Source: Onthophagus taurus | Lineage: Eukaryota > Arthropoda > Insecta > Coleoptera > Scarabaeidae | Assembly (NCBI RefSeq): GCF_036711975.1 | Contig: NC_091966.1 | Span: forward strand, 16,375,501-16,439,500 | Length of the DNA stretch: 64,000 nt | Direction: 5' to 3' | Part shown: positions 1 through 24,600 of the stretch, piece after piece | How positions within the stretch are numbered: the first letter of the stretch is position 1 | How the letters are laid out: every line of letters begins with the position of its first letter | Notes under the pieces: generated by a model | The model's input: only the letters and a program-made list of their open reading frames with translations | Databases searched by the model: none | Told to the model about the DNA's origin: nothing | Made by a program: the position numbers and the translations under genes

Positions 1-711
1 ACGTTGAAATAACCTTCTTGGGAGCCAGAAAACATTACGTTTTCAGCCCCCAATTTGTTTGCAATGTCCAAAGCTCGTTTTGTTTGATATCCGGCGTAAG
101 TTACCACGGTGGCTTCTGGGTTGGTTACTGCTCCATTACGAAATCTATTAAAAAAGAAATAAGAAAGAATTGGGAAAAATGGTTTTACACAAATTACTTG
201 TAAGTATTTTTAAAATCAATTCCAATCCATAAAGGACGAATTCCACTTTTTTGCTGGTACTCTTGAATTAATTCGACAATTTGCTCGTAATTGTATTGCG
301 TTTCTTCGGATGTTTCTCCTTCCGGTGCCAAATCTCTATCATAAGCAGACCAATACTTCAATCCTTAAAATTACAAAAATGTTTTTTTCTCTCTCTAAGA
401 AAACGAATTTTGATAATTTTATTAATCTCACCCATTTTCATACACAATTCAAACATAGCCCGAACTCCTCTTTTATAATTTTCCAAACTATGAGTATTTT
501 GAACATTGTATAATCCAGTTGGGTTTTCACTCCATGGTCTTGGGGCACATCCAGGATAAGGAGTAAAAGCTTTTCCAAGAAAAATGCTGGGTCTCAACCA
601 ATCCTCCATGGTCCTCCCATGTAAGCGTTCGTTTGAATTATAATAACGAAAATAGAAGTTGTCTTCATGATGAGTGTAAGAAGCGTCCGGTTTGTAATCG
701 ATTCGTCCCAT
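1..711 (-). CDS. Xylose isomerase-like protein, 5' part (three exons visible, 3' end outside window)
   Basis: Exons read on the minus strand: 711-432, 363-198 and 144-1 (open at the edge). The junctions have GT..AG borders and keep frame. The product starts MGRIDYKPD and follows the bacterial/plant xylose isomerase fold in order: an FRYYNSNERL block (residues about 21-30), a GRTMEDWLRPS block (about 32-42), YDRDLAPEGE (101-110), then a block matching the family's HGAATNP region (FRNGAVTNPEA). The known reaction is D-xylose to D-xylulose with two divalent metal ions. Two conserved positions are changed. The catalytic His of the F-H-D-x-D motif (E. coli His101) is Tyr101 here, while Asp104 is kept. 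The Trp before the GGREGY-type motif is Ser. The metal-binding E-P-K-P region is not in the window. An in-frame start at 882 would add 57 residues without family similarity, so I chose 711. Family assignment is good; activity is doubtful. Confidence 0.82.
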
Positions 712-1375
712 AACTGATGTTGAATATGAATACGTAAATTTGGAATAGAATTCTTCCGTTAGAAACGACGTGCACGACGCTGATTCCACTTTATTTAGCG
801 TATAACTTACCTGGGAAATTGTCGTTGTCCAAACTCCTTGTTTGCTCGCGAGTCTTTTGGCGTTTGATGTTACCTGTCGCAAACATTTTAGCTCCTCTTC
901 GATTACGCTGACGGAGACGGTCTGTGCCCGAGATGTCGCAATTCGCGTCTTTTATACCGGGGTAGTCTTTAAAAATTTGTTCGTGCGGTCCAGGGTCATT
1001 TCGGGATTCATGTATCCAAACTCTCTTTTGTTCTTATCAAGCAGCGTGAAAATGAGGATAAAAGGGAGTTATTGAAATTTATATGCTTCGTAACCTTGAG
1101 GACGTTCGAAGAAAAAATAATGTAAACGATCCTCAAATATATAATTTTATTAAATAATTTCATTGTGTTATTAAATACTTAATATTGTTTTATTACATTA
1201 TTTTGTTATATATTGATTTATTTTAAATAGAGCTTTAAATCTAGATAACTCAATAATCCAATAAAGCTAATAGGATTTTTTTTAATTATATGTTTTGTTA
1301 CAAACGATTTCATCCACTGCGTACAGGATTCATGATTTCAATTAAGGAAAATAAATAAAAATTCAATAATTTTTA
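712..1375. other. Intergenic between xylose isomerase-like gene and CDKAL1 3' end
   Basis: About 660 bp. The part up to about 1075 is of mixed composition and probably holds the promoter or 5' UTR of the xylose isomerase-like gene. The rest is AT-rich. No RNA gene or element recognised. Confidence 0.5.
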
Positions 1376-4300
1376 TTATAACATATATTTTGATATAGAA
1401 ATCCAGATCAATCGGCAAATAATAGCAAAAAATAGCGCTGTTAAAGCATACCAAAGCTTACTTCCTTCTCTTAAAACCGTTCGTATTCCAGAAACTTCAC
1501 CCTGCTTTAAAGGTTTAGTTAAACCAGGAGCGACAACATTTCCATCATAAACAACCCCCATCATAGAGAATTTTGTGGCACTTTCAATTTTAACGGTAAC
1601 AAGTTTTCCCATTAACTCATCTTTTTTTGGTATTAAAACTTGTTCGTAAAATTTATTATGCCCCACGAAATGTTCGTTATCATGGGAAATTTCTGTTACA
1701 AGAATATCCTGGACTTCACCGACTTTATGGCCGTATGGTTCATAAGAATAAAACAGCTCTGTTAATTTTTTTGTGCGTTGTTTAACTTCTTGCGCTGGAA
1801 TTCTTTGCATTTTTGCGGCGGGAGTACCTGGTCTAGGAAAGAATTGGTTGATAAAAAGACTAGGAAATTTATGTTTTTCGCATAAAACAAGTGTGTCGTT
1901 AAAGTCTAATTCAGTTTCTGTTGGAAATCCGCAAATTATATCGGTTGCTATTGTCATTCCTGGAACTCTAAATAACAATAAAATAATCAATTTATTATTT
2001 TTTTTGTTGTAATTAATTTAATAAACTTACTTTGATTGTAAGAAATCAACAACATATTCGAATTCTTTACATGTATATTCTCTTTTCATATCAGCTAAAA
2101 CTTGATCACTTCCTGATTGAACAGGAACATGAAGGAAACTATAAACTCTTGGATGTTTCATTATTTTTGCGATTTCTTCCAAATGTTCAAGAATGTAAGG
2201 TGGATTTGTCATACCTAATCTTAATCGGCAACCTTCTGGAATTACCTCTACTAATTTCCATAATAATTCTGGTAAAGAGGAACCAATATCTCTACCATAC
2301 GTGCCTGGAATAAAAAATGAGTTATAACTAGAATGGCCACAATAATTTAATTATAAAAATAAAGTACTTATATTAACAAATTTCTAATAAAACTTTACGT
2401 TGTATTTGAGAAAACATGATTTTAGGAGAAGAGAAAAATTCGATTAATCCTGCTAACTTCCTTGTTCTTCCCCCTTAACATTGTCTAACTATCATAATAA
2501 ATAAACTCATTTCCAATATAACTAGTTAGGTTATATAAACTTACTGTGTAATCAGATATTCTAAACATATATTAAAAGTTGAAATCTACAGGAACTTGAT
2601 CCGTTAGAAGATTTGGATGAGATGATGAGGAAGAATGATCTCTCCACGAAGAAATTCAAGAACAACCGATGGAACCGTGTCCCCTTAACATCGAGAAAAG
2701 CCAGAACGAATTCTTTGTGAACGGTGACCCATACATTTAACATAACAAATCCAAACATTTAACATCTTCAACTAAGCTTATTTACCACAATTTTCGCAGC
2801 ATGCGACATTTGCTGAATGAAAATTACAGATACCTAATCTTCAGTCCAATTTCGTCCAAAGAAGCGAAACATAGAAAAGTCCCCGAAGAAATTATGTGAT
2901 TCAGACAGAGCCCTAATGCTGACAAAATTGCTGAGCTTATCAACATGCGATGTTCCACCTGCTTTAAATCCATGTCACATGAAAAATGTTCCAACGTCAC
3001 TGTTTTACAATGATTTTCCAGGTTAATCATCCGCTCCACAACAAGTGTTAAATTTATTTTTATTCTTATTTATTCATATTGTTCGCAAAAATGAAATTTT
3101 CCAAATGTTTCAAAACATAAGAATGTTTTACACCATGCACATGTTATGACCCCTATATCCCCACAGATAACACACGTTGGCTTCCAAAAACTTCCTTCTT
3201 ACTCGAAAAGTAAACCTCCACGGGATTTTCAAAATGATCTGGTCCCTCCTCTACATATCCACTTGCAAACCATGCGTATTTAAAAACATTTATGTAAACC
3301 ACATAATTGTTCTATAGGATCTGGGAGAATCTGGAGATCTATGGGACCTGCACAACCTGCACTAACTTGAAATAACCGACTCCCGTCAACGCTGCGCCAG
3401 CCAGTCGCCAATACCTTACAAGATTAAACACGTTTTTCTGACCGCAACTATCAAAACTTCAAAAATACAAATTGCAAATTATTTTGCATAATTTAAATTT
3501 TTAATTAGTAAAGAGATGGGATGGGAATTAGGAATGAATCGAACACTATGTAGTGAATGGTTAATGATAAAGTATAAACTATCACTGCTAAATATATAAC
3601 TAATATACGTATGATGATAAATGTTAGGTATAAAAAAACTTTAAAAGATTATTATTTTACTTACTATTGAAAGTACTGGAAGTAGATAAACTACTTGAAG
3701 TAAACAAATAGTTCCTCAAGTATTTCTTATGACAAACAAGTAGCCAGTACATTTTAAGCTAAATACTGAAAGTACAAGTACTAAGTACCTACAAGTTGAA
3801 AGTAAACTACTTAAAGTAAAAAAGTACTGAATACTTTACTTGGAGTATATTTTTACAGCAAGTAGCTCAACTCTGTTTTCTGCTTACTAACTGATGTGCT
3901 TTTTTAAAACATTGCGGTCATCTTCTTTTAATTTCTGGCTTATATAGCCCATTTGCATATATCTATATAATGTAGTGGCAATTTGTTATCTATATAATGA
4001 TATCTATTAGCTACCCTCGCTTGATTAATTACAGATTCTGTAATTACTACTAATTTTTCTCTATATATCCCTATTTCTTCTATATATTTAGCCCATATCT
4101 ACAATTGTAGTTTTGATTGACTTATCGATATTTGTTTTTTATGGATTCTAGTTTTAAATAACCTTTCTTCCTACTTATCCAGTAATTGACCATCTCTAAT
4201 TTCTAGTTGTAGTCGATGTAGTCATCCTTCAATGGACAATAAGCTCAGTATCTTCTACAAAACTTTCACTTGTATCCTGGTCTTCAATAATTTGCTGACC

Positions 4301-7300
4301 GTCATTGATGCTATTTGATGAGTCGTAAACTAACATAGTTTCGTCTTCAATTTGCTTATTATAATCTTCCATACTTTCCATTAAAATATGCTGTATTCTT
4401 AGTAATAAAATACCTTATTTATCTAGAAGTTTTATATTGACTATTGAAAGAAAACCCTACCTCATTAAACAGCGACAGAAAGATTTTTAAAAAACAATAC
4501 TAATTAACATTTAACATATTATGATGGCAGTTTTCATTTTCGAGACATAAACAAAAATATTCTCTAATTTCTAGCCCTTATAAGTACTTCAAAAAAATTT
4601 TTTACTTCACATATAAAACGAAGACCGTGTCAAATTTTGCCAAAATCGACAACGCCTGGGAGAGAATTAACATTTAAGAAGGTATTTAACCCCAACCACC
4701 TCTAAATGTTCTATAGGTATGCCTTATTTTAAAGATTTACATCAAACATTTTACTGTGCGACTAGAAAGAAAAATAATTCAATTAAATACCGACAGTAAG
4801 CTCATTACATTCGCGTACATAATGCAAATTCTCAATTATTACGTTGATGAGGCGGTGATAGCAACAATGATCCGGCTGCGAGCGGCTAACGATAAATGGC
4901 TTTATAAATGTGGAAAATTGACAAGCCAGCTATGGGAGGAGGCATGTAGCAAACAGCCGCTCCTGAGTGGCAGAACAATCCATGCCTGACGAAACTGTCC
5001 TCCAATTATGGGTGGACGGATCTCGTAGGGAAACTGGCTCTGGTGCTTCGATTTATTCCGTCGAATCAACAATAAAAGTTTCTAAACCGCTGGGAATTTG
5101 GCCCACTGCGCACGGAGCTGGTGGCCATTTCTGTGGCGGCTAAGAAAATTTCCAAGAAAATTAGTAACAAAAAAAATTATAATATATTCTGATTGCAGAC
5201 AAGCTCTCCTCTCGCTTGGGCGGTATCGCTGATCATCCTCGTTGCTTGAGGACTGGCATAACAATCTTAGTGAGGCAGCCGTTAGCAATGAGATTACGAT
5301 CTGCTGAACAAAGGGTCATTCGGGAAATAAGCTTCATGACATAGTGGACAAACTCGCAAGGAAAGCTGCAGACGAATCTCCGGGATCGCCAGAACCATTC
5401 ATTGCCCCAACAATAAGGCCTTTCATAGAGCTTAAAAAAGAGGAAACACGTAAGAAGTTTTTAACTTACTGGGACAGGACACCAGGATGTCGCCAAGCCA
5501 AGGAGGCTCTGATGTACCCTGACCCTAAACGAACAGATTTATTTATGAGGCTGTCCAGGATGAACCTACGTTCGGTCATAGGTCTAATCACTGGACACTG
5601 GCATCTACAAAAGCACTTACTGAACATGATGGGAATAAGTGACACCGACATCTGCAGAGGATGCGGTGAGGAGGAGGAATCGGCGGAACACATTCTATGC
5701 GACTGCGTGGCCCTCCAAACATTAAGGTTAGCCATTTTTGGAGATATCCAGATTCCCATGAGTAGAATCAGGGCAGTACAACCAGGACAAATTCTAGCCT
5801 TTGCCTACAAGGTAATATAGCTGAAAGGACCCTAATGCTGACCAAAAGAGGGAAGTGAGGCGGTGCAGCCTGCCTTCCCGCGAATCCAGAATAATGCAAA
5901 TAATAATATAATGGTAATAAAACGTATAATTTTAGACATTTTCGTGTATAGATCTTTATACTTATATTGTGCAGAGAATTTTTAAGATGCCGCATTTTGG
6001 TTATTGTTCTTATGCATCTCCTTTCTGCTTTATCAATGACATCCTTAGTCTTACATACCGAGATAATTGTTAGTGGGTATGTGTCCATAGTCGAAAACCG
6101 GTCTACATATGTCCATTTCCATTTATGTAACCATTTTAATACTTGGTAGTAGAGATTTTGTAAATTTGCTGTAGCTTTGTCTAATGTGTTGCTATGTGTG
6201 TGCAACTAATTTACGGTTTTCTTTAAAGTAGTTTTAAAATACCTAACAATTTTATCACATCATTCTTAAGGAATGTGGTTACGTCTTAACCTCCATAACT
6301 TTCCTGAAGTTGATCTAGATAGAGCCAATGGGAAAAAACATAAATAACTAATATTTTTGAACATACTAGTACATTTAACGCCACCAAAATTGATAAGGCG
6401 ATTTTTATATAATTCTGAAAAAAATAAGGATATCTCCCACCTTTTCACCCTATATGTGAGGTATATGTATGACACATCAAAATAAAACTTTTAAAAAATG
6501 AATATTAGTTTGAATTTCCAAAAAGTTTAAAACACTTTTCGTTTTCAAAATATAAGCGAAAACGTAATTTTTTCCCTTACTTTGAACTCTTATTCAACCT
6601 TATTTTGGTCCATTCTATGTACGAAATTTCTTCGAAATTGGTGAGACACAATTCGGTAAGACAATATTCTTATTAACATTCCTCTGTGTTAATGATATTT
6701 TAAGCATTTTTTGGATTAAAACCTTGTAATGGTAAATAACATGCTGATAAGTGAAAATATAAATATTTTGAGTCAAGTTTTGCCTTTTATGCTACTAATT
6801 TATCATACAATCTACTTATAGCAAGGAAATAGTAATATTCAAACTTGTTAGTAATATTTCTGAAAATCCCAAGCTTAAAAATCAAAATTAATAACGAAAA
6901 ACCAAAATTCAACTTTTAGTTAAATAGTACTTATAGGAGGAGTAATACAATGAAGCTTCTGAAACTTGCTAAAAGTACTGTCATGTCTAAGAAAGAAGAT
7001 TAGATACTGTAAAGCAGTGGTTCTTAACTTGTGGGTAATTACCCCTTGGGGAGTAAAATGTCAGTATGGGATGGGTGACCGAGCCACATTGATTTCTACA
7101 TTGTTTTGGTAAACTGGCTCGTAAACTACAAGAATTACTACTATTAATTTTGATGCAACTAATGTGATAAAAAAACAACAAAAGAAAAATTATAACAGAG
7201 TGAAACAAAAGGCGACGCACATCTTATTCTTTTTGTTAAGTTGTAATGTAATCAATCGCGTTAACTTGATTGTTTAAGTGATCTTATAAAACCTTGCATA

Positions 7301-10300: not shown

Positions 10301-12447
10301 AAATCTAATTTCTACACAAAATTCGCAAAATAATCAGTATACAGCGTGTCCCGTATCTTCCGCATCAGAGCATTATACGGTTGTAGAATACATTATTCTG
10401 AAGCGATCTTTCTAATAAAATTTTTTCGAAATGTTTATAATAACCGCACGGGAACTGTTTAACGACGACCAATAACGGACAACTTTGATTCATCGAAAAA
10501 GTTTATTTCTCTTTCCATGACGAAATTATTGGTGAGTACACGTGGGAAACGAGTTATCATCGGCGTAGCGGACCGGCCGAGGGTGGCACCGATTACCTGA
10601 GTCTGATTTGCGATCTGCTGATTGGACGAAAAACAGTTCCTTTAAACAGTTCCCGTGCGGTTATTATAAACATTTCGAAAAAATTTTATTAGAAAGATCG
10701 CTTCAGAATAATGTATCCTACAACCGTATAATGCTCTGATGCGGAAGATACGGGACACGCTGTATTAGGTGGATCCAAATGTAACGTTTTTTTTCAACAA
10801 GACCATACCAATATTTGACCCACCCGCTGCTAAAAAATCAAATCTATCATAAAATTAATACTGATATAAATTAGTAAATTATGTGGATCCGAATGTAACG
10901 TTTATTTTCAACAAGACCATACCAATATTTGACCCACCCTCTGCTAAAAAACCAAATTTATCAATAAAATTAATACTGATATAAATTAGTAAATTATGTG
11001 GATCCGAATGTAACGTTTTTTTTCAACAAGACCATACCAATATTTGACCCACCCTCTGCTAAAAAACCAAATTTATCAATAAAATTAATACTGATATAAA
11101 TTAGTAAATTATGTGGATCCGAATGTAACGTTTTTTTTCAACAAGACCATACCAATATTTGACCCACCCTCTGCTAAAAAATCAAATTTATCAATAAAAT
11201 TAATACTGATATAAAGTAGTAAATTATGTGGATCCGAATGTAACGTAAAAAGGGGATTGGAGAACGGGGTTTCAGGTAGAACGTAAGAAAAGACATTTCA
11301 ATCGTTGTGTCGTATACCTAAGATACAAGATTATTTAACTCGAAATGCGTTTTAAGAAACTGTTAATTCTTTATTTTTTGTTTAAATTATTAAATTTCCA
11401 ATTTTATGGAATAAATGTAATGTGATTGGTTGTGAAAAACAAAGAAACGATCGGAATTAGCAGTGGTGCTGCGTAAATATACGAGTAGAGCATGGTTGAT
11501 GACGTCAGAAAACGTGACGTCACATCGAAATTTCAAACTCATTTTTCGGTCCGTTTTTCAATTTTCCGCACTTTTTTTTTATTTCTAACGGCTTATTTGA
11601 GCGATTTCACACGGGTAAAAAAAAAATTGGCTATTTTTAAGCTTGATGTCTATTCTTAAATTATACCAAATTTTATACCTGTATCTTCTGATGTTAACCA
11701 AATTTCAACAACACCCTCTTGAAAAGCTTGTTGGGCCCTCTCAACAATTTCTTCAGGTGGATAACTCCCCAATTCACCCCTAGCATGTTTAGTTTTACAA
11801 TAAGTACACTGATTCAAGCAGCCAGTGTTGATGGCAATAATTTCAATAAGAGGATTCTTTCGTACTTTAGGTAATAACAGCGAAGCGCCTCCAATTTTTT
11901 TGCCATTTTGTTTTTTAGTCCCATACAGTTTTACAATATGTCCTTTAAGAGTTTCTTCAACTACTTCAACCACACGATCAATTTGTTGTACTCCAACAAC
12001 ACTTAATCCTTGTAAATAACCGGACTTTGGAGCGCCTTGTGGAACACATCCAGCTAAAACAACATGTTTACCTAGCTTTTTGCCTGATTCTATAGCGTTC
12101 CGAAAATGATCCTCAGCGGGGTTTTTTACAGTGCAACTATTTAATAACCATAAATCGGCTTGTTCTTTATCATCAGTAAGTTTATAACCATATGCAGCTA
12201 ATTGACCAGCCATGTATTCTGAATCTGAGTTATTATGGGCGCAACCCCATGTTTTAACATAAATCGTTTGAGTTCCTGGGATGTTATCTCCAATTGCTTG
12301 GGGCTCAACATCTTCAACCGTTTTCTTTTTAGCTCTAATTTTAATGGATTTTCTTGTACTGTAACGCTGCTTTGGTGTTATGTCTTGAGATGAAATCAAA
12401 TCTTCAATATCATCGATTATTTCACTACAAACACCAGATCCTTCCAT
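1376..12447 (-). CDS. Cdkal1: Threonylcarbamoyladenosine tRNA methylthiotransferase (CDKAL1 orthologue)
   Basis: Three exons, 12447-11679, 2304-2031 and 1967-1376, join in frame to 544 residues (human CDKAL1 is 579). The enzyme converts t6A37 to ms2t6A37 in tRNA-Lys(UUU). Domains in order: an N-terminal methylthiotransferase domain (about 60-170) with cluster cysteines Cys69, Cys105 and Cys134; a radical-SAM domain with the C-x3-C-x2-C motif Cys210/Cys214/Cys217; a TRAM-like region; and a C-terminal hydrophobic segment ([13 protein letters not shown]) near the end, as expected for the ER tail anchor of this family. Start at 12447 ([17 protein letters not shown]) aligns with the human N-terminus; an in-frame ATG at 12483 would add 12 residues. 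Intron 1 is 9.4 kb and filled with transposons, intron 2 is 63 nt. Transcribed divergently from the snoRNA host gene. Coding sequence is intact. Confidence 0.95.
2305..4755. other. CDKAL1 intron 1, distal part, without recognised gene
   Basis: AT-rich intronic sequence. At 3655-3880 it is dense in the words AAGTA/TACTT and ends in ctcaactctg. This is the composition and end seen in many non-autonomous hAT elements (ends CAGAGTTG), but I could not find the partner end. No coding potential beyond short chance frames. Confidence 0.4.
4756..5905 (+). mobile_element. Non-LTR retrotransposon (RNase H-bearing LINE), decayed 3' part
   Basis: Plus-strand fragments in shifting frames. There is an RNase H-like start ([19 protein letters not shown], about 5006-5063), then a 158-codon open stretch at 5344-5820. 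The latter contains the [13 protein letters not shown] motif and a C-x2-C...H...C zinc motif ([15 protein letters not shown]), the standard C-terminus of R1/I/LOA-type LINE polymerase proteins. The 3' end carries a short AAT-rich tail (about 5889-5912). Several stops and frame breaks; not functional. Lies in CDKAL1 intron 1. Confidence 0.85.
5906..6205 (-). mobile_element. Jockey-like LINE reverse-transcriptase fragment
   Basis: The minus strand reads [19 protein letters not shown] and then [17 protein letters not shown] with a deletion between. These are typical end-of-RT words of Jockey/CR1-type LINEs. It lies opposite to the neighbouring plus-strand LINE, so two insertions met here. Partial and decayed. 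Confidence 0.55.
6206..7006. other. AT-rich intronic sequence
   Basis: Nothing recognised on either strand. Confidence 0.5.
7015..8538 (+). mobile_element. hAT element, ZBED5-like transposase, decayed
   Basis: Bounded by terminal repeats CAGTGGTTCTTAAC (7015) and GTTAAGAAACACTG (ending 8538). It is flanked by an exact 8-bp target duplication CTGTAAAG (7007-7014 and 8539-8546), the hallmark of hAT elements. The plus-strand frame 7322-7690 reads [20 protein letters not shown], matching ZBED5/FAM200-type hAT transposases. Further pieces ([20 protein letters not shown], about 7870-7930) lie in another frame after stops. The N-terminal zinc finger is missing. Inside CDKAL1 intron 1. Confidence 0.9.
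8547..8771. mobile_element. Short hAT-type non-autonomous element beside the larger hAT
   Basis: A 225-bp segment between two further copies of the same 8-mer CTGTAAAG (8539-8546 and 8772-8779). Its ends are weakly similar to each other (caagcaacctttttt versus the complement of actaggaaatcctg), and it carries the C-rich/G-rich sub-terminal runs common in hAT elements. No coding capacity. Confidence 0.6.
8780..9807. other. AT-rich intronic sequence
   Basis: No gene or element recognised. Confidence 0.5.
10340..10764. mobile_element. MITE with 122-bp terminal inverted repeats
   Basis: Begins TACAGCGTGTCCCGTATC and ends with its complement GATACGGGACACGCTGTA. The arms 10340-10461 and 10642-10764 are nearly perfect inverse copies. 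The outer TA fits a Tc1/mariner-type TA target. No ORF. Nested in the 9808-11662 element. Confidence 0.9.
10768..11245. repeat. Tandem repeat, 115-bp period, four units
   Basis: The word ggatcc(a/g)aatgtaacg recurs at 10771, 10885, 11000, 11115 and 11230, so periods are 114, 115, 115 and 115. Units differ by only a few substitutions. The array starts within a few bases of the right end of the MITE. Confidence 0.95.
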
Positions 12448-12838
12448 TATTATATTTGATATAAAATGAATTAAATGTAACAATTATTTTGAGTTGAGGT
12501 TAAGTTAAATGTAATAATTAGTTACTTTATTTATTTTAATGTTTGCTATGAACACGCTATTTATATGTTGGTAGTATTGGAAAAATTAACTTCCGTTAAA
12601 TCTCTTGTATAGAGCAACCAATTTTATGCGATTCTACAATTTTAGAATAATTTTAAATATTCGTGGGGATTTGGTAATTTGTTGTTAATGTTTAAGTTAA
12701 TTATTGATGAAATAATAACAAATATTTTAAAATGATTTGGATTGTACCGATTTGTTGAGATGTATTTCGTCATGTTAATATGGATGGGTGATATAGTAAG
12801 CGTCGGGTATAAATACCGGCCATCTCTCTAAAAGCCGT
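12448..12838. promoter_or_regulatory. Divergent promoter region of CDKAL1 (-) and the snoRNA host gene (+), with TATA box at 12808-12815
   Basis: There are 391 bp between the CDKAL1 start codon and the presumed start of the snoRNA host gene. TATAAATA lies at 12808-12815. About 31 nt after its first base is C followed by six T (12839-12845), a 5'-TOP-like start as expected for snoRNA host and ribosomal protein genes. Confidence 0.6.
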
Positions 12839-12925
12839 CTTTTTTGACAAAGATGTCTTCTCGTAAGGTTCGTTGTTGCTTATTGTTGAAAGGTAAGTTT
12901 ATTTTGATCATTTTATAATTGTTTT

Positions 12926-12995
12926 ATGGTAAATGATGAGATTTGTCTCGTTCGTATGAATTTGTTGATTAGAACTATTCACTAACTGATTTGTT
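12926..12995 (+). ncRNA. C/D-box snoRNA, U30 (SNORD30)-like, intron 1
   Basis: C box ATGATGA at 12933-12939, C'-like TGTTGAT at 12963-12969, D box CTGA at 12986-12989. Between them GTCTCGTTCGT (12945-12955) is complementary to the conserved 18S rRNA stretch ACGAACGAGAC and is followed directly by a D'-like ATGA. The fifth base upstream of D' pairs with the adenosine that human U30 methylates (18S A1383). Located in intron 1 of the host gene. Confidence 0.85.
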
Positions 12996-13152
12996 ACGTT
13001 AAAATTATTATTATAACCTCAAAGTTTTAGAACCACGTGTTTCATATCAAACTTTTATTTACAGATTATTTCCTAAAGCGACGCTTTTTGGGGTGTTATT
13101 ATAACACTTGGTAAGAATTTTTACATACTATATTTATTGATTGGTTTAATTT

Positions 13153-13231
13153 TTCTTATTGAATGATGATTTAATTTTTGACAAGCATATGACAGAATTA
13201 TTATTGTTGATACTTTGTTCTGATTTAAGAA
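13153..13231 (+). ncRNA. C/D-box snoRNA, U27 (SNORD27)-like, intron 2
   Basis: Closed by a perfect terminal stem TTCTTA/TAAGAA (13153-13158, 13226-13231). C box ATGATGA 13163-13169, D' CAGA 13193-13196, C'-like TGTTGAT 13205-13211, D box CTGA 13220-13223. The guide GACAAGCATATGAC (13180-13193) is complementary to 14 nt near the 5' end of 18S rRNA, the U27 target. The fifth base upstream of D' points to the adenosine equivalent to human A27. Confidence 0.9.
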
Positions 13232-13453
13232 AAAAGATTGTTTAATAATATTTTTGTGATTATTGTTACTTGAATTGTAATATATTTTCTACGTTATATA
13301 GAAATCTTTCTGCAAGAATCCTTGGATTTTGGTTTTGGAAGAAGAGGAGGGCCTTTGTGGACTGATTTAAGAGAATGAAAATTGAATTAAATCTGGGAAC
13401 TGAGATTATGTAGGTAAAATTGATGTAATATGATGTATTTGTAATTAAAATTA

Positions 13454-13539
13454 TTTTATTATGATGTTAACTGTTACCGTTTGAACAATCTTTGATTAAA
13501 TTATAAGGCTGCTATTTTTATAGTTCTGAATCAATAAAA
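13454..13539 (+). ncRNA. C/D-box snoRNA, 28S rRNA guide, intron 3
   Basis: Terminal stem TTTTATT/AATAAAA (13454-13460, 13533-13539). C box ATGATGT (13461-13467, one base off consensus), D box CTGA (13526-13529). GTTACCGTTTGA (13473-13484) is complementary to 12 nt of a highly conserved 28S rRNA stretch (TCAAACGGTAAC). The D' box is unclear, so the exact methylated base is not assigned. I do not match it to a named human snoRNA. Confidence 0.75.
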
Positions 13540-13682
13540 ATATAAGAAATCTTTTTGATATTCTTAAATGATTGTATTTTAATATATTCTTTTTTATTAC
13601 AGGCTTTATGCAGTAAAAGGTGCCTCACCATCAATATTATAACATAAAAGGTAAGCTTTAATTCATAAAAAAAAATTATTAA

Positions 13683-13757
13683 CATCTAAAATGATGAACA
13701 TTTAGTTATCCCTGTCTTACATAGAATTTGTGGGGAAAATTTCATTACTGATTCAAT
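13683..13757 (+). ncRNA. C/D-box snoRNA, 28S rRNA guide, intron 4
   Basis: C box ATGATGA (13691-13697), D box CTGA (13748-13751). AGTTATCCCTGT (13704-13715) is complementary to the conserved 28S rRNA sequence ACAGGGATAACT, just before a possible D' CTTA (13716-13719). The terminal stem is weak. Position, spacing and guide match the other three introns. Confidence 0.75.
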
Positions 13758-13990
13758 TCTTAATTTTTTTTTAATAAAATTTGGTTCTAATCAGAAACAT
13801 GATTCTAAGAGTTTATTATTTTGTTACAGGAATAGTTCTTGGGGGACCATCTATAAAGATTAGTAAGTTAAATATTGGTTCATATGGAGTAGAAACTAAA
13901 TTCTATGTTGAGCATATCAATGATTTTCAAGCCACTGAAAATAGCATCTATTAGGAATAAAACTTTTTTTTTTGAATGTTATTTTGTTAA

Positions 13991-15967: not shown

Positions 15968-17842
15968 TTAGATGTTATCAATTAAATCCTCCAAATTTGT
16001 TGAAAGTTGAATATAAGCTTGATTAGCCATCTTCCCAATCATTCCTTCCTGACTATTTTCAGGTTCTAATGTTAATATTTCAGAGGATTCTTTCAGTAAT
16101 TTTATGGCTTCTTGAAGTTTACTTCTCAATTCGTCTTTGTTAATTACATCAACGTTGTAAAGGTTCCTTGCTAACATTATAATAGGGGCATGAAGTTCAT
16201 AAAGAATCGTACCTAAAAATAACACGATCAATTGAAATTCTATAATTATTTTCTCATTACCTCTTAATCTTGTGTATCCAGGTTCAAGAACGTTAATATT
16301 CTCCATAATATTTTGACAAAGTTCAATTTTTCTTTCATATAAAATATTTGGTAGAATATCCATTGTGTATCCTTCAACTTTTCCATACATTTGTGCCAAA
16401 GAAATACGTAAAATTGTAAAATAGGCATGTCTTGGGTGAAGTATTGATCTGTATTTTCGATAAAGTGATTCTTTTGTTTCTATCGCTGAAGCATCTTGTT
16501 CCATGGCTTCAGCTTGATCAATTTCTTCTTGAATTGTTTTAAAAACTTTTTGGACCGTAGTTCCCTTTAAAGAATGCTGGCAATGGGTACATTTCCATTC
16601 TGATTCAGGATCTAAAAGTGGCGCTGTTGATAAAATTACCCCGTTATCGCACTTCATACACTTCAACGTGCTCATGTGAGTTCCTAATTCGGTTGGGTCA
16701 CTACATCTTTGGCAGTTACAATCGAAATATTTACTTTCTTTCAAAAATGCTCTCCTTGCCATTGTTGGCCACATGGAGTATGTGTAACTTGTACAAAGTT
16801 CTTCGCCTTTATTGATTGAAACAGACGCTTTTAATGTTACTTTAAAATCTTCTTCGTTTCCCTCCCCATTACTTTCTATGGAGTGAGTTACGTTTGAGAC
16901 GCAATTATGTGAAAAAGTTGATAATTTTGGATATAAACATCTTATAGCGTTTCCAGATATAGTTCTTGCTTCGAAAGCATTTACGTCCAAAAGACCACAA
17001 ACTTGATGAATAAGATCTTCACTAAATCGATCGCATTTACAAGTTCCTCGAAGATAACCAACTATATTTATGGTGTTAAATTTCCAAATTTCTTTTTCTT
17101 TGCGGTCGTTTAAGTGTGCTTCCATGCAATTAACATGTTTATCCCAAATATCCGGGTGTTTTTCTTTAGCTAAAAGTACTCGAAGTGGAGTTATGCATTC
17201 GTATTGAAGACATGGTGCGTAAGGATCTTGAACATTCATAAATTTCGCCATAGCGTTTGCAAAAACTTCGCATTCTGCGTTTTTATGGGCCGGAATATTT
17301 TCACATGTTTCGTTACAAACTGGCCATGAACATTTTGAACATAAATATGTGCAGTCTATGTAAGCATAGCAACCTAAGCATACCGGTGGACTATCTACAA
17401 AAAATGAAAATTAATTAAGGAGAAATGGACAAAATGTTTCTAAAAACGCAGTTTCTACTTTACCGTTTTTGGGTCCATAAGCAAATGGCTTTTCGCTAAA
17501 AATTAATTCGCCAGCTTTTAAATCTCTATTGCTAACTGCGTACCGGCCAACTATGTCATTCCTACGCTCTTCAAAATCAGCCTAAAATAAATTTTCCAGT
17601 TGGCCAGACGATAATTTTAAGTGTATTCTGTAGGTTAGCACCAAGGTCCGTTGCGTGAACATACTGTGTAATTAATACGCAATGGACCTTGGGTTAGCAC
17701 AGCAAATCGAGAGAGGAAGCAATATTTCAAAGCTCATTCTCGGCTGTGGTAAAACAAGCGGCAATAGTTAATTGAGCGACAATAAATGGTAAATAAATAA
17801 ATACGAGTTCCAATTAATACTTACTTGTTCCGGTGTAGCCAT
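15968..17842 (-). CDS. SmydA-like SET and MYND domain protein, copy A
   Basis: Exons 17842-17825 (MATPEQ), 17581-17464, 17394-16261 and 16212-15968 give 504 residues. It belongs to the arthropod-specific SmydA group of SET-domain proteins, presumed lysine methyltransferases whose substrates are mostly unknown. Visible domains: split SET start (about 8-45); MYND zinc finger with Cys51, Cys54, Cys64, Cys67, Cys72, Cys76, His82 and Cys87; SET core with the S-x2-NH-like block FSHNCVSNVTHS and GEELCTSYT; and a post-SET cysteine cluster (FDCNCQRCSDP, then CMKC). The C-terminal region is helical. The last intron is 48 nt, lacks a stop and is a multiple of three, so its retention would give 520 residues. 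Coding sequence intact. Tandem paralogue at 22635-24436. Confidence 0.92.
17642..17691. mobile_element. 50-bp inverted-repeat insertion in SmydA-A intron 1
   Basis: CAAGGTCCGTTGCGT...ACGCAATGGACCTTG forms a 15-bp stem with one mismatch. It is flanked by a 9-bp direct repeat GGTTAGCAC (17633-17641, 17692-17700). The paralogue has no insertion at the same place (24285-24300, reading ttctgttagcacagc), so it serves as an empty site. Confidence 0.8.
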
Positions 17843-21656: not shown

Positions 21657-24600
21657 GGTTTTCTTCTAGGCCCATAACCTGTTGAACTGGAGGATACAAA
21701 ACATCCGCGTGGTACGAATGAGGGTGCTAATGGACCAACATTTTTTTAAGATAATCTCAACAAGGTCTAGTGTTAGTTCTAGTTACACCTGTTATTCATA
21801 GTGAATTATAAAACTAGAACTAATACAATACTAGAAGTAGAAATAAAACTGAGGACACTTGAGGTCTAGTGTTAATTCCAGTGCTACTGTTAGCTCTAGT
21901 TTTAGTTGTTCTGCAAATTTCTGAGCTTATGATGCAAATGAGTTAAGTAACGCCATCTTCTGTCCGACGATTGCGGTCACATAGTCAGCCGCATGAGACT
22001 GTAAGCCCGTGTACTGGAAGATTAAAAATCTGTTGAACATATAAAATTTCTTTGGTGTATTAGACCGTGCGTAACCACTGAAGGGTTAAGATTGATAAAG
22101 TTGTTTGAAGAAAAAAATTATTTTATAAATAATATTGTATCGTTTTAATGATGATAAATTTAATATACAATTATGAATACGCAAATCATGATTTCTATTT
22201 GCCCTCACTGAATAATTTAATCAAATATAAAAAATGTGTGTGAAAAATATTTGTTATTAAATAATTAATTTATCTTATAGATGACCCATGAAGAATTATT
22301 GAATAGAAGGTTAAATAAATATTTTATATTTAATAAAATTTTGTAATTCCCTTAAATGATGGTTTTAATTAATATACGCTATGAATAACGTTTGATTATT
22401 AAACTGTATGCAGTCATACAGTTTCAACTTCAAATCAATTCATTTATTACTTTCACTTTAGATTTTGGCCAAAAATATTCATTTAATTTGTTTTTTATTT
22501 TAATTTTAGAACTAAACCACATGAAGTTCAAACCACATCCAATTCACAATGTATCTGATTAATTAAAAAAAAAGATTTTGTGTAACATTAAAAAATGTAC
22601 GAATAAACGGCTTTAAAAGAAAGAAGAAGATAAATTAAATGTTATCAATTAAATCCTCCAAATTACTTGAAAGTTGAATATAAGCTTGATTAGCCATCCT
22701 CCCGATCATTCCTTCCTGACTATTTTCAGGTTCTAATGTTAATATTTCAGAGGATTCTTTCAGTAATTTTATGGCTTCTTGAAGTTTACTTCTCAATTCG
22801 TCTTTGTCAATTACATCAACGTTGTAAAGGTTCCTCGCTAACATTATAATCGGGGCATGAAGTTCATAAAGAATCATACCTAAAAATAACAGAATCAATT
22901 TTAATTCTAACATTATTTTCTGATTACCTCTTAATCTTGTGTATCCAGGTTCAAGAACATTAATATTCTCCATAATATTTTGACAAAGTTCAATTTTTCT
23001 TTCATATAAAATATTTGGTAGAATATCCATTGTGTATCCTTCAACTTTTCCGTACATTTGTGCCAAAGAAATACGTAAAATTGTAAAATAGGCATGTCTT
23101 GGGTGAAGTATTGATCTGTATTTTCGATAAAGTGATTCTCTCGTTTCTATCGCTGAAGCATCCTGTTCCATGGCTTCAGCTTGATCAATTTCTTCTTGGA
23201 TTGTTTTAAAAACTTTTTGGACCGTAGTTCCCTTTAAAGAATGCGGGCAATGAGTACATTTCCATTCTGATTCAGGATCTAAAAGGGGCGCTGTTGATAA
23301 AATTACCCCGTTGTCGCACTTCATACACTTCAAAGTGCTCATGTGAGTCCCTAATTCGGTTGGGTCACTACATCTTTGGCAGTTACAATCGAAATATTTA
23401 CTTTCTTTCAAAAATGCTCTCCTTGCCATTGTTGGCCACATGGTGTAGGTGTAACTTGTAAAAAGTTCTTCGCCTTTATTGATTGAAACAGACGCTTTTA
23501 ATGTTACTTTAAAATCTTCTTCGTTTCCCTCCCCATTACTTTCTATGGAGTGAGTTACGTTTGAGACGCAATTATGTGAAAAAGTTGATAATTTTGGGTA
23601 TAAACATCTTATAGCGTTTCCAGATATAGTTCTTGCTTCGAAAACATTTACGTCCAAAAGACCACAAACTTGATGAATGAGGTCTTCACTAAATCGATCG
23701 CATTTACAAGGTCCTCGAAGATAACCAACTATGTTTATGGTGTTAAAATTCCAAATTTCTTTTTCTTTCCGGTCCTTTGCATGTGTTTCCATGCAATTAA
23801 CATGTTTATCCCAAATATCCGGGTGTTTTTCTTTAGCTAAAAGAACTCGAAGTGGAGTTATGCATTCGTATTGAAGACATGGTGCGTAAGGATCTTGAAC
23901 ATTCATAAATTTCGCCTTAGCGTTTGCAAAAACTTCGCATTCTGCGTTTTTATGGGCCGGAATGTTTTCACATGTTTCGTTACAAACTGGCCATGAACAT
24001 TTTGAACATAAATATGTGCAGTCTATGTAAGCATAACAACCTAAGCATACCGGTGGACTATCTACAAAAAATTAATTACGGAAAATTGGACAAAATTGTT
24101 TCTAAAAATGCAGTTCTACTTTACCGATTTTGGGTCCATAAGCAAATGGTTTTTCGCTAAATATTAATTCGCCAGCTTTCAAATCTCTATTGCTAACTGC
24201 GTACCGGCCAACTACGTCATTCCTACGCTCTTCAAAATCAGCCTAAAATAAATTTTCCAGTTGGCCAGACGATAATCTTAAGTGTGTTCTGTTAGCACAG
24301 CAAAGCGAGAGAGAAAGCAATATTTCAAAGTTCATTTTCGGCTGTGGTAAAACAAGCGGCAATAGTTAATTGAGCGACAATAAATGGTAAATAAATACGA
24401 ATTCCCATTAATACTTACTTGTTCCGGTGTAGCCATCGTAAAATCGGTGCTTTAACTTTTGCAACCTGCTGCGATTTGGAGATTTAGTTATTTATGCCGG
24501 TTTAACTAAATTTAAAGGGAGGTAAAAATAGAATTCCCACCTCCACCTACAATTTACATTTTTGGAACAGTTTACGTGCTAATTAGTTGTTGATTTGAAT

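What the first reader, a model, noticed from the sequence alone, without database searches (positions are those of the whole stretch)
12839..13976. An unannotatable-by-ORF gene: insect UHG-like host with four C/D snoRNAs
Four successive short introns each contain a C box, a D box and a stretch complementary to conserved rRNA, while the exons lack a usable reading frame. Two guides match U30 (18S) and U27 (18S), which share one host gene (SNHG1/UHG) in vertebrates. This suggests the cluster is ancient and kept in this insect. ORF-based annotation would miss the gene.
Basis: partly seen in the sequence, partly recalled or inferred. Interest (0 to 1): 0.75.

Follow-up and report, generated by a model that had tools for sequence, protein, structure and literature searches.

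The report
Beetle non-coding snoRNA host gene
A dung beetle carries a small gene with no evident protein product whose introns appear to release short RNAs that mark ribosomal RNA for chemical modification; this is an ordinary kind of gene in animals, here in a beetle.

Summary
The observation largely holds. At 12839-13975 (+) lies a compact predicted five-exon gene. A TATA box at 12808 precedes a pyrimidine (TCT/TOP-like) start at 12839. Four short introns (172-191 nt) each hold a box C/D pair, with D 73-78 nt from the 3' splice site. The longest spliced ORF is 28 aa, the same as shuffled sequence. The genome is an Onthophagus dung beetle, best match O. taurus.

Guide by guide. Intron 2 is U27: 14 perfect pairs to the beetle's own 18S, D' pointing at A28, and the top SNORD27 score among the 65 candidates scored in the 291 Mb assembly, though not significant there (E 0.8). 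Intron 4 is snR38: 14 guide bases identical to Rfam snoR38. Intron 1 has the 11-nt U30-type 18S guide, but SNORD30 is not among its listed Rfam matches. Intron 3 has no credible target and a weak C box, so four rRNA guides are not shown.

It is a UHG-class host gene, a known kind. Descent of the U27-U30 pair from a UHG shared with vertebrates is possible but weakly supported (chance about 2-4%). No transcript or methylation data were available. Interest is modest.

The parts
12808..12815 (+). TATA box (TATAAATA), 31 bp upstream of the predicted start
   Evidence: pattern position; function inferred
12838..12846 (+). TCT/5'TOP-like initiator TCTTTTTTG, predicted C+1 at 12839
   Evidence: sequence; TOP/TCT starts are described for snoRNA host genes in PMC6954239 (passages)
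12839..12892 (+). exon 1 (holds the ATG of a 28-aa ORF)
   Evidence: GT donor gtaagt; predicted
12893..13064 (+). intron 1
   Evidence: GTAAGT...TTACAG; predicted
12933..12989 (+). box C/D RNA 1, U30-type by guide: C ATGATGA 12933, guide GTCTCGTTCGT 12945-12955, D' ATGA 12956-12959, D CTGA 12986-12989
   Evidence: the complement ACGAACGAGAC occurs in a printed 18S sequence (PMC6245355); SNORD30 not listed by Rfam scan
13065..13110 (+). exon 2
   Evidence: predicted
13111..13301 (+). intron 2
   Evidence: GTAAGA...TATATAG; predicted
13163..13223 (+). box C/D RNA 2, U27: C ATGATGA 13163, guide GACAAGCATATGAC 13180-13193, D' CAGA 13193-13196, D CTGA 13220-13223
   Evidence: 14 bp with own 18S; SNORD27 29.2 bits, top of 65 scored candidates in the assembly, E 0.8
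13302..13413 (+). exon 3
   Evidence: predicted
13414..13602 (+). intron 3
   Evidence: GTAAAA...TTACAG; predicted
13461..13529 (+). box C/D-like RNA 3, unassigned: C ATGATGT 13461, possible D' TTGA 13481-13484, D CTGA 13526-13529
   Evidence: best Rfam match SNORD96, 25.1 bits against a cut-off of 43
13603..13650 (+). exon 4
   Evidence: predicted
13651..13829 (+). intron 4
   Evidence: GTAAGC...TTACAG; predicted
13691..13751 (+). box C/D RNA 4, snR38: C ATGATGA 13691, guide AGTTATCCCTGTCT 13704-13717, degenerate D' CTTA 13716-13719, D CTGA 13748-13751
   Evidence: Rfam snoR38, 43.0 bits (cut-off 45), E 4.5e-5
13830..13975 (+). exon 5, with AATAAA poly(A) signal at 13956
   Evidence: the 3' end is predicted

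Best explanation
A polymerase II, TOP/TCT-type, non-protein-coding snoRNA host gene of the UHG class in an Onthophagus beetle. The primary transcript is spliced. Each debranched intron is trimmed back to a box C/D RNA protected by the core snoRNP proteins. The RNAs in introns 1, 2 and 4 guide fibrillarin to the 18S A1383-equivalent (U30 site, human numbering), 18S A28 (U27 site) and the 28S G4362-equivalent (snR38 site, human numbering). The exons carry a 28-aa ORF whose stop codon spans the exon 2-3 junction, with two more exon junctions downstream; they have no evident product and are probably cleared, by nonsense-mediated decay or otherwise. Shown here from sequence: gene anatomy, boxes, guide of RNA 2 against own 18S, guide of RNA 4 against Rfam. 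Inferred: transcription, splicing, processing, methylation, decay, the U30 assignment beyond its guide, and any function of RNA 3.
For: Four introns with a C/D pair each; D box 73-78 nt from the 3' splice site in four of four (p about 3e-4). U27: 14 perfect pairs to own 18S with the fifth base upstream of D' opposite A28 (18S start set by its 5' motif), the Am27/Am28 site of human, plant and yeast U27/snR74 and a site that Drosophila CD5b/c are predicted to guide. Of the three SNORD27 matches in the assembly at E up to 10, this one scores highest and the other two lack the guide. snR38: E 4.5e-5. ORF no longer than shuffled. TATA plus TCT start. Flank pairing around the C/D bodies better than shuffled as a set (p 0.009).
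Against: No match reaches an Rfam gathering score. SNORD27 at E 0.8 in the assembly is not significant, and at that looseness the model also matches 10 of 14 prokaryote control genomes, none over the cut-off. Flank pairing taken singly is below 0.05 in one of four. Intron 3 has a weak C box and no target. No expression, small-RNA or methylation data. The 18S A1383 and 28S target stretches could not be read in this beetle's rDNA in the loci held. A table gives U30 a second site, 28S A3804 (the only U30 site in the passages); I did not test whether RNA 1 can guide it.
Confidence: 0.9

Rival explanations
1. The locus is the direct descendant of a bilaterian UHG gene: U27 and U30 (and perhaps others since lost) have stayed in one host since before insects and vertebrates split.
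For: U27 and U30 are both listed under SNHG1 in human and the two guides lie in neighbouring introns here. Chance of two or more of four from the vertebrate set is about 2-4%.
Against: Member 4 is not in the vertebrate set as recalled, member 3 is unassigned. SNORD30 is not among the listed Rfam matches of intron 1. snoRNA locations are unstable over deep time (PMC3511168, passages). No intermediate lineages could be searched.
Confidence: 0.2
2. The gene encodes a conserved micropeptide (MSSRKV..., 28 aa), and the snoRNAs are passengers in a coding gene.
For: The ATG lies 14 nt from the predicted start; a Drosophila Uhg2 ORF has a row in a Poly-Ribo-Seq table (PMC4359375, one passage).
Against: Length equals the shuffle mean. 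No related locus could be compared. The Uhg2 row reads 'None' where other rows name, for example, 'Mitochondrial' (column headings not seen).
Confidence: 0.05
3. Intron 3 holds no snoRNA: it is an ordinary intron with chance C- and D-like boxes, so the gene hosts three RNAs.
For: Degenerate C box, only 9-10 nt matches to visible rDNA, flank pairing p 0.40.
Against: D-to-splice-site distance of 73 nt fits the other three; a weak SNORD96-like match, 25.1 bits, E 0.12 in the 3 kb scan. Part of the rDNA was not visible.
Confidence: 0.3
4. The whole pattern is a chance arrangement in AT-rich DNA.
For: C- and D-like boxes are easy to find: 30 loose C/D pairs on both strands of the window.
Against: Only intron 2 has 12 or more perfect guide bases at a box in visible rDNA; snoR38 E 4.5e-5; regular splice-site spacing.
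Confidence: 0.02

Closest known systems
Drosophila Uhg1-Uhg8 (non-coding snoRNA host genes)
   Same: Spliced hosts dedicated to snoRNAs; Uhg1 holds 16 snoRNAs, and its loss slows growth and delays development with otherwise mild effects (PMC4430873, passages); Drosophila CD5b/c are predicted to guide the same 18S Am28 (PMC13228274, section read).
   Different: Fewer RNAs (three or four) than Uhg1. The U30-type site (human 18S 1383) is the first position of a region that the Drosophila map names as human-specific in methylation (1383-1668), so the fly may lack it. Which fly host carries which RNA was not checked.
Vertebrate UHG / SNHG1
   Same: One C/D RNA per intron and a TOP start (recalled for UHG); U27 and U30 on board (human table passage in PMC6466398).
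   Different: SNHG1 encodes eight snoRNAs. snR38 is not among the vertebrate UHG members that I recall, and in chicken it lies in ENSGALG00000001886. The intron 3 RNA has no counterpart found.
Neurospora crassa UHG-like snoRNA host genes
   Same: Intron-bearing hosts with only short ORFs; snoRNA to 3' splice-site distances said to resemble D. melanogaster; homologues of U27 (NcCD21, Am28) and snR38 (NcCD23) are listed as intronic (PMC2780460, passages).
   Different: Fungal. U27 and snR38 carry different roman numerals in the table (VI and V, which I take to be linkage groups), so they do not appear to share a host; I did not see their hosts named.
Rfam families SNORD27 (RF00086), snoR38 (RF00213), SNORD30 (RF00088)
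   Same: Guides of introns 2 and 4 match the first two.
   Different: Both below gathering cut-offs; SNORD30 not listed for intron 1.

Membership tests
box C/D snoRNA | C box RUGAUGA and D box CUGA, here 57-69 nt from C start to D end | tested here: met
   Introns 1, 2 and 4 exact; intron 3 has ATGATGT.
box C/D snoRNA | terminal stem joining the flanks of C and D | tested here: inconclusive
   Duplex of flanks against 1000 shuffles each: p 0.092, 0.126, 0.402, 0.008; Fisher 0.009.
box C/D snoRNA | 10 or more nt of rRNA complementarity just upstream of D or D', fifth base opposite the methylated residue: intron 2 | tested here: met
   14 bp with own 18S, A28.
box C/D snoRNA | the same: introns 1 and 4 | tested here: inconclusive
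   Agreement with a printed 18S sequence and with the Rfam snoR38 guide; the beetle's own target stretches were not visible.
box C/D snoRNA | the same: intron 3 | tested here: not met
   Only 9-10 nt matches in visible rDNA; part of the rDNA not visible.
box C/D snoRNA | expression as a stable RNA bound by fibrillarin | not testable with these tools
   No reads held.
SNORD27 (U27) | Rfam RF00086 gathering score of 52 bits | tested here: not met
   29.2 bits; top of 65 scored candidates in the assembly but E 0.8. It is called U27 by guide, site and box spacing, not by the curated score.
snoR38 (snR38) | Rfam RF00213 gathering score of 45 bits | tested here: not met
   43.0 bits, E 4.5e-5; 14 identical guide bases.
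SNORD30 (U30) | match to Rfam RF00088 | tested here: not met
   Not among 16 matches at E up to 10 for intron 1. So 'works like U30' rests on the guide and box position alone.
non-coding snoRNA host gene (UHG class) | one snoRNA per intron, near 70-80 nt from the 3' splice site | tested here: met
   73-78 nt in four of four; intron 3 counted although unassigned.
non-coding snoRNA host gene (UHG class) | exons without coding potential | tested here: met
   28 aa against shuffle mean 28.1. Conservation was not testable.
non-coding snoRNA host gene (UHG class) | 5' terminal oligopyrimidine start | tested here: inconclusive
   TCTTTTTT 31 bp after a TATA box; start not mapped.
vertebrate UHG/SNHG1 (orthology) | same set of snoRNAs | tested here: not met
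   At most two of four RNAs shared.
vertebrate UHG/SNHG1 (orthology) | conserved neighbouring genes | not tested
   Neighbours here are CDKAL1-like and SmydA-8-like; the human locus was not looked at.

The most novel reading that the evidence does not exclude
The U27-U30 pair marks a surviving fragment of a UHG gene that already existed in the common ancestor of insects and vertebrates, with the U30 guide and its 18S methylation kept in beetles but lost in flies.
Probability: 0.17. Interest if true: 0.5.

Novelty: new member of a known kind. Interest (0 to 1): 0.3.

Why it matters
It is a worked example of a gene that ORF-based annotation would pass over but that appears to supply rRNA modification guides. 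If the U27-U30 linkage proves old, it would be a rare case of a snoRNA host arrangement surviving since the insect-vertebrate split, against the view that hosts turn over freely. The predicted methylation at the 18S A1383-equivalent in a beetle is directly testable.

Tried and rejected
Coding gene: rejected, ORF length equals shuffled. Further snoRNAs in the window: a strict scan (RTGATGA, CTGA, donor and acceptor in range) left four candidates on + and none on -; three are introns 1, 2 and 4 (intron 3 fails the strict C box). The fourth, 667-717, was not pursued; a longer pairing from the same C box, 667-783, has an 11-nt 18S match, a length that I judge to be chance. In one search's ten best, two groups of minus-strand candidates convert to places inside the two SmydA-8-like ORFs and were set aside. 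Copies of the host elsewhere in the genome: one match, itself (that search skips simple repeats and very common words).

Intron 3 targets tried: SNORD96, snoR18 and snoR77Y alignments, visible rDNA. From recall, a 12-nt match GTTACCGTTTGA to a human 28S domain V stretch, and a weak 18S fit of the snR77 kind. The first runs into the supposed D' box and the second has only about six or seven Watson-Crick pairs; neither was accepted. A recalled yeast stretch was used for a rough count of whether the U31/snR67 site is the one matched; it is not.

Myc E-box CACGTG at 13034: the window holds 6 with 5.6 expected; not pressed. One search is a bacterial promoter scan and says nothing here.

Literature: no paper on a beetle snoRNA host gene showed in the listings (15 and 12 titles seen of 2,371 and 13,673 partial matches; none of those listed holds 'snoRNA host' or 'snoRNA host gene'). 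That is not proof of absence. A DOI that I recall for the Drosophila rRNA methylation atlas is not held.

Limits of the data: the rDNA comparison used only letters visible in L008 (7,500 of 10,000 bases; 4,725 of the 7,225 used). Whole-assembly searches for SNORD30, SNORD31 and snoR38 did not complete, so uniqueness was looked at for U27 only, and there only the best 65 of 91,999 first-look candidates were scored.

Full report
Where it is. The window is G000:C1:16375501-16439500 of a 291 Mb assembly in 33 contigs. A SmydA-8-like ORF of 427 aa in the window is 96% identical to a 504-aa protein of Onthophagus taurus held on a contig of 44,244,632 bases; C1 is listed with 44,240,000. The host is therefore a dung beetle of or near that species.

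Gene anatomy. TATAAATA at 12808 lies 31 bp upstream of the C of TCTTTTTTG, the layout of a TATA box and a TCT/TOP initiator. Such starts are described for snoRNA host genes (PMC6954239, passages). Five exons (12839-12892, 13065-13110, 13302-13413, 13603-13650, 13830-13975) are set by GT...AG introns of 172, 191, 189 and 179 nt. AATAAA at 13956 gives a poly(A) signal. The 406-nt spliced product has a longest ATG ORF of 28 aa; 500 shuffles average 28.1, 95th percentile 53. All of this is prediction from sequence.

The four introns. Each has a C box and a D box. From the end of D to the end of the intron are 75, 78, 73 and 78 nt; from the 5' splice site to C, 40-52 nt. Placing four bodies at random in these introns would put all in one fixed 70-80 nt band with p about 3e-4. 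A Neurospora paper states that this distance matters for processing and that its values resemble Drosophila's (PMC2780460, passages); the 70-80 nt figure itself is recalled.

Intron 2 is U27. SNORD27 scores 29.2 bits, E 0.034 in the 3 kb scan, under the curated 52. In the whole assembly three matches came at E up to 10 (65 of 91,999 first-look candidates scored): 29.2 bits here, then 28.5 and 27.2, and the other two lack the guide. That ranking is not significant in itself (E 0.8), and the same loose search matched 10 of 14 prokaryote control genomes, none over the cut-off. The stronger evidence is the guide: 13180-13193 forms 14 perfect pairs with the beetle's own 18S (L008 998-1011). Counting five bases up from D' (13193-13196) reaches A28 if the 18S begins at about L008 976 (by its conserved 5' motif). 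A27/A28 is the U27/snR74 site (PMC3511168 table passage). Among 30 loose C/D pairs on both strands of the window, the next best has 11 perfect box-adjacent pairs with the visible rDNA, this one 13.

Intron 4 is snR38: Rfam snoR38 43.0 bits, E 4.5e-5 in the 3 kb scan, cut-off 45. Fourteen guide bases agree with the family consensus; D' is CTTA instead of CTGA. The family's site is 28S Gm4362 in human. The corresponding 28S stretch was not visible in the loci held; the conserved piece ACAGGGATAAC stands in a yeast 25S oligonucleotide in PMC4510066 (passage).

Intron 1 is U30-type by guide only. GTCTCGTTCGT (12945-12955) is the exact complement of ACGAACGAGAC. 153 papers hold both that string and '18S' (8 titles seen); I saw it in an 18S sequence of Chlamydomonas (PMC6245355, passage) and in an 18S blocking oligonucleotide for Rhizaria (PMC6247509, passage). 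D' ATGA follows at once, and its fifth base points at the second A of GAA, human A1383 by recalled numbering; a table gives U30 the 18S position 1383 (there printed as C) and 28S A3804. Against: RF00088 is not among the 16 matches for this intron at E up to 10; the stretch was not visible in the beetle's 18S; the 28S site of U30 was not tested; and matches of 11-12 nt with one G-U allowed occur elsewhere in these introns by chance, so the box position carries much of the weight.

Intron 3 is unassigned. C is ATGATGT; the best Rfam match, SNORD96, has 25.1 bits against 43; visible rDNA gives 9-10 nt matches, no longer than noise. It may guide an rRNA site that I could not see, be an orphan, or be no snoRNA.

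Flanks. Pairing of the 25 nt before C with the 30 nt after D beats shuffles with p 0.092, 0.126, 0.402 and 0.008, 0.009 combined: some support for terminal stems, carried mostly by intron 4.

How it probably works. As in Drosophila Uhg genes and vertebrate UHG: transcription by polymerase II from a TOP-type promoter, splicing, debranching, trimming to the protected C/D body, guiding of fibrillarin. The stop of the 28-aa ORF spans the exon 2-3 junction and two junctions follow, a setting for decay. These steps are inferred from the class. Drosophila Uhg1 loss slows growth and delays development with otherwise comparatively mild effects (PMC4430873, passages), so a mild growth role is a fair expectation.

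Is it ancient? Human U27 and U30 are both listed under SNHG1. With 90-130 C/D families assumed and eight in the vertebrate gene, two or more of four by chance has p 0.019-0.038 (framed after seeing the data, and counting RNA 1 as U30). A survey of 44 eukaryote genomes concludes that snoRNA locations are not stable over deep time (PMC3511168, passages). A Drosophila map lists human 18S 1383-1668 as a region of human-specific methylation (PMC13228274, section), so the U30 site may be unmethylated in flies; a beetle U30 would then be a retained trait or a separate gain. I put common descent at about one in five.

Verdict. A real and ordinary member of the UHG class in a beetle, with three credible guides (one firm against own rRNA, one firm against Rfam, one by guide only) and one uncertain.

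Noticed in passing
11656-12483 (-), 1376-1990 (-): Pieces of a probable CDKAL1-like tRNA methylthiotransferase (UPF0004 and Radical SAM; TRAM; the name is recalled) read away from the snoRNA host gene, so the two may share a short divergent promoter region.
   Followed up: partly
15968-17251 (-) and 22635-23906 (-): Two ORFs, very similar by eye; the first is SmydA-8-like, 96% identical to an O. taurus protein. They look like tandem copies.
   Followed up: partly
13603-13950 (+): Spliced exons 4-5 leave an open frame of about 50 codons without an ATG; its origin was not searched.
   Followed up: no
13034-13039: Myc-type E-box CACGTG in intron 1, about 195 bp after the start; 6 in the window with 5.6 expected. 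Drosophila snoRNA and Uhg genes are reported as Myc targets.
   Followed up: partly
667-783 (+): A C/D-like pair with 11 perfect bases to 18S beside a TTGA box; probably chance.
   Followed up: partly
5344-5820 (+): ORF with a weak zf-RVT match (E 8e-4, 20.4 bits), below its cut-off of 27.5; perhaps a retroelement remnant.
   Followed up: no
G000 contigs C19, C22, C26, C28, C30, C31: Nine 5.8S matches over the Rfam cut-off lie on six contigs (a lower bound), so rDNA is spread over several contigs of the assembly.
   Followed up: no
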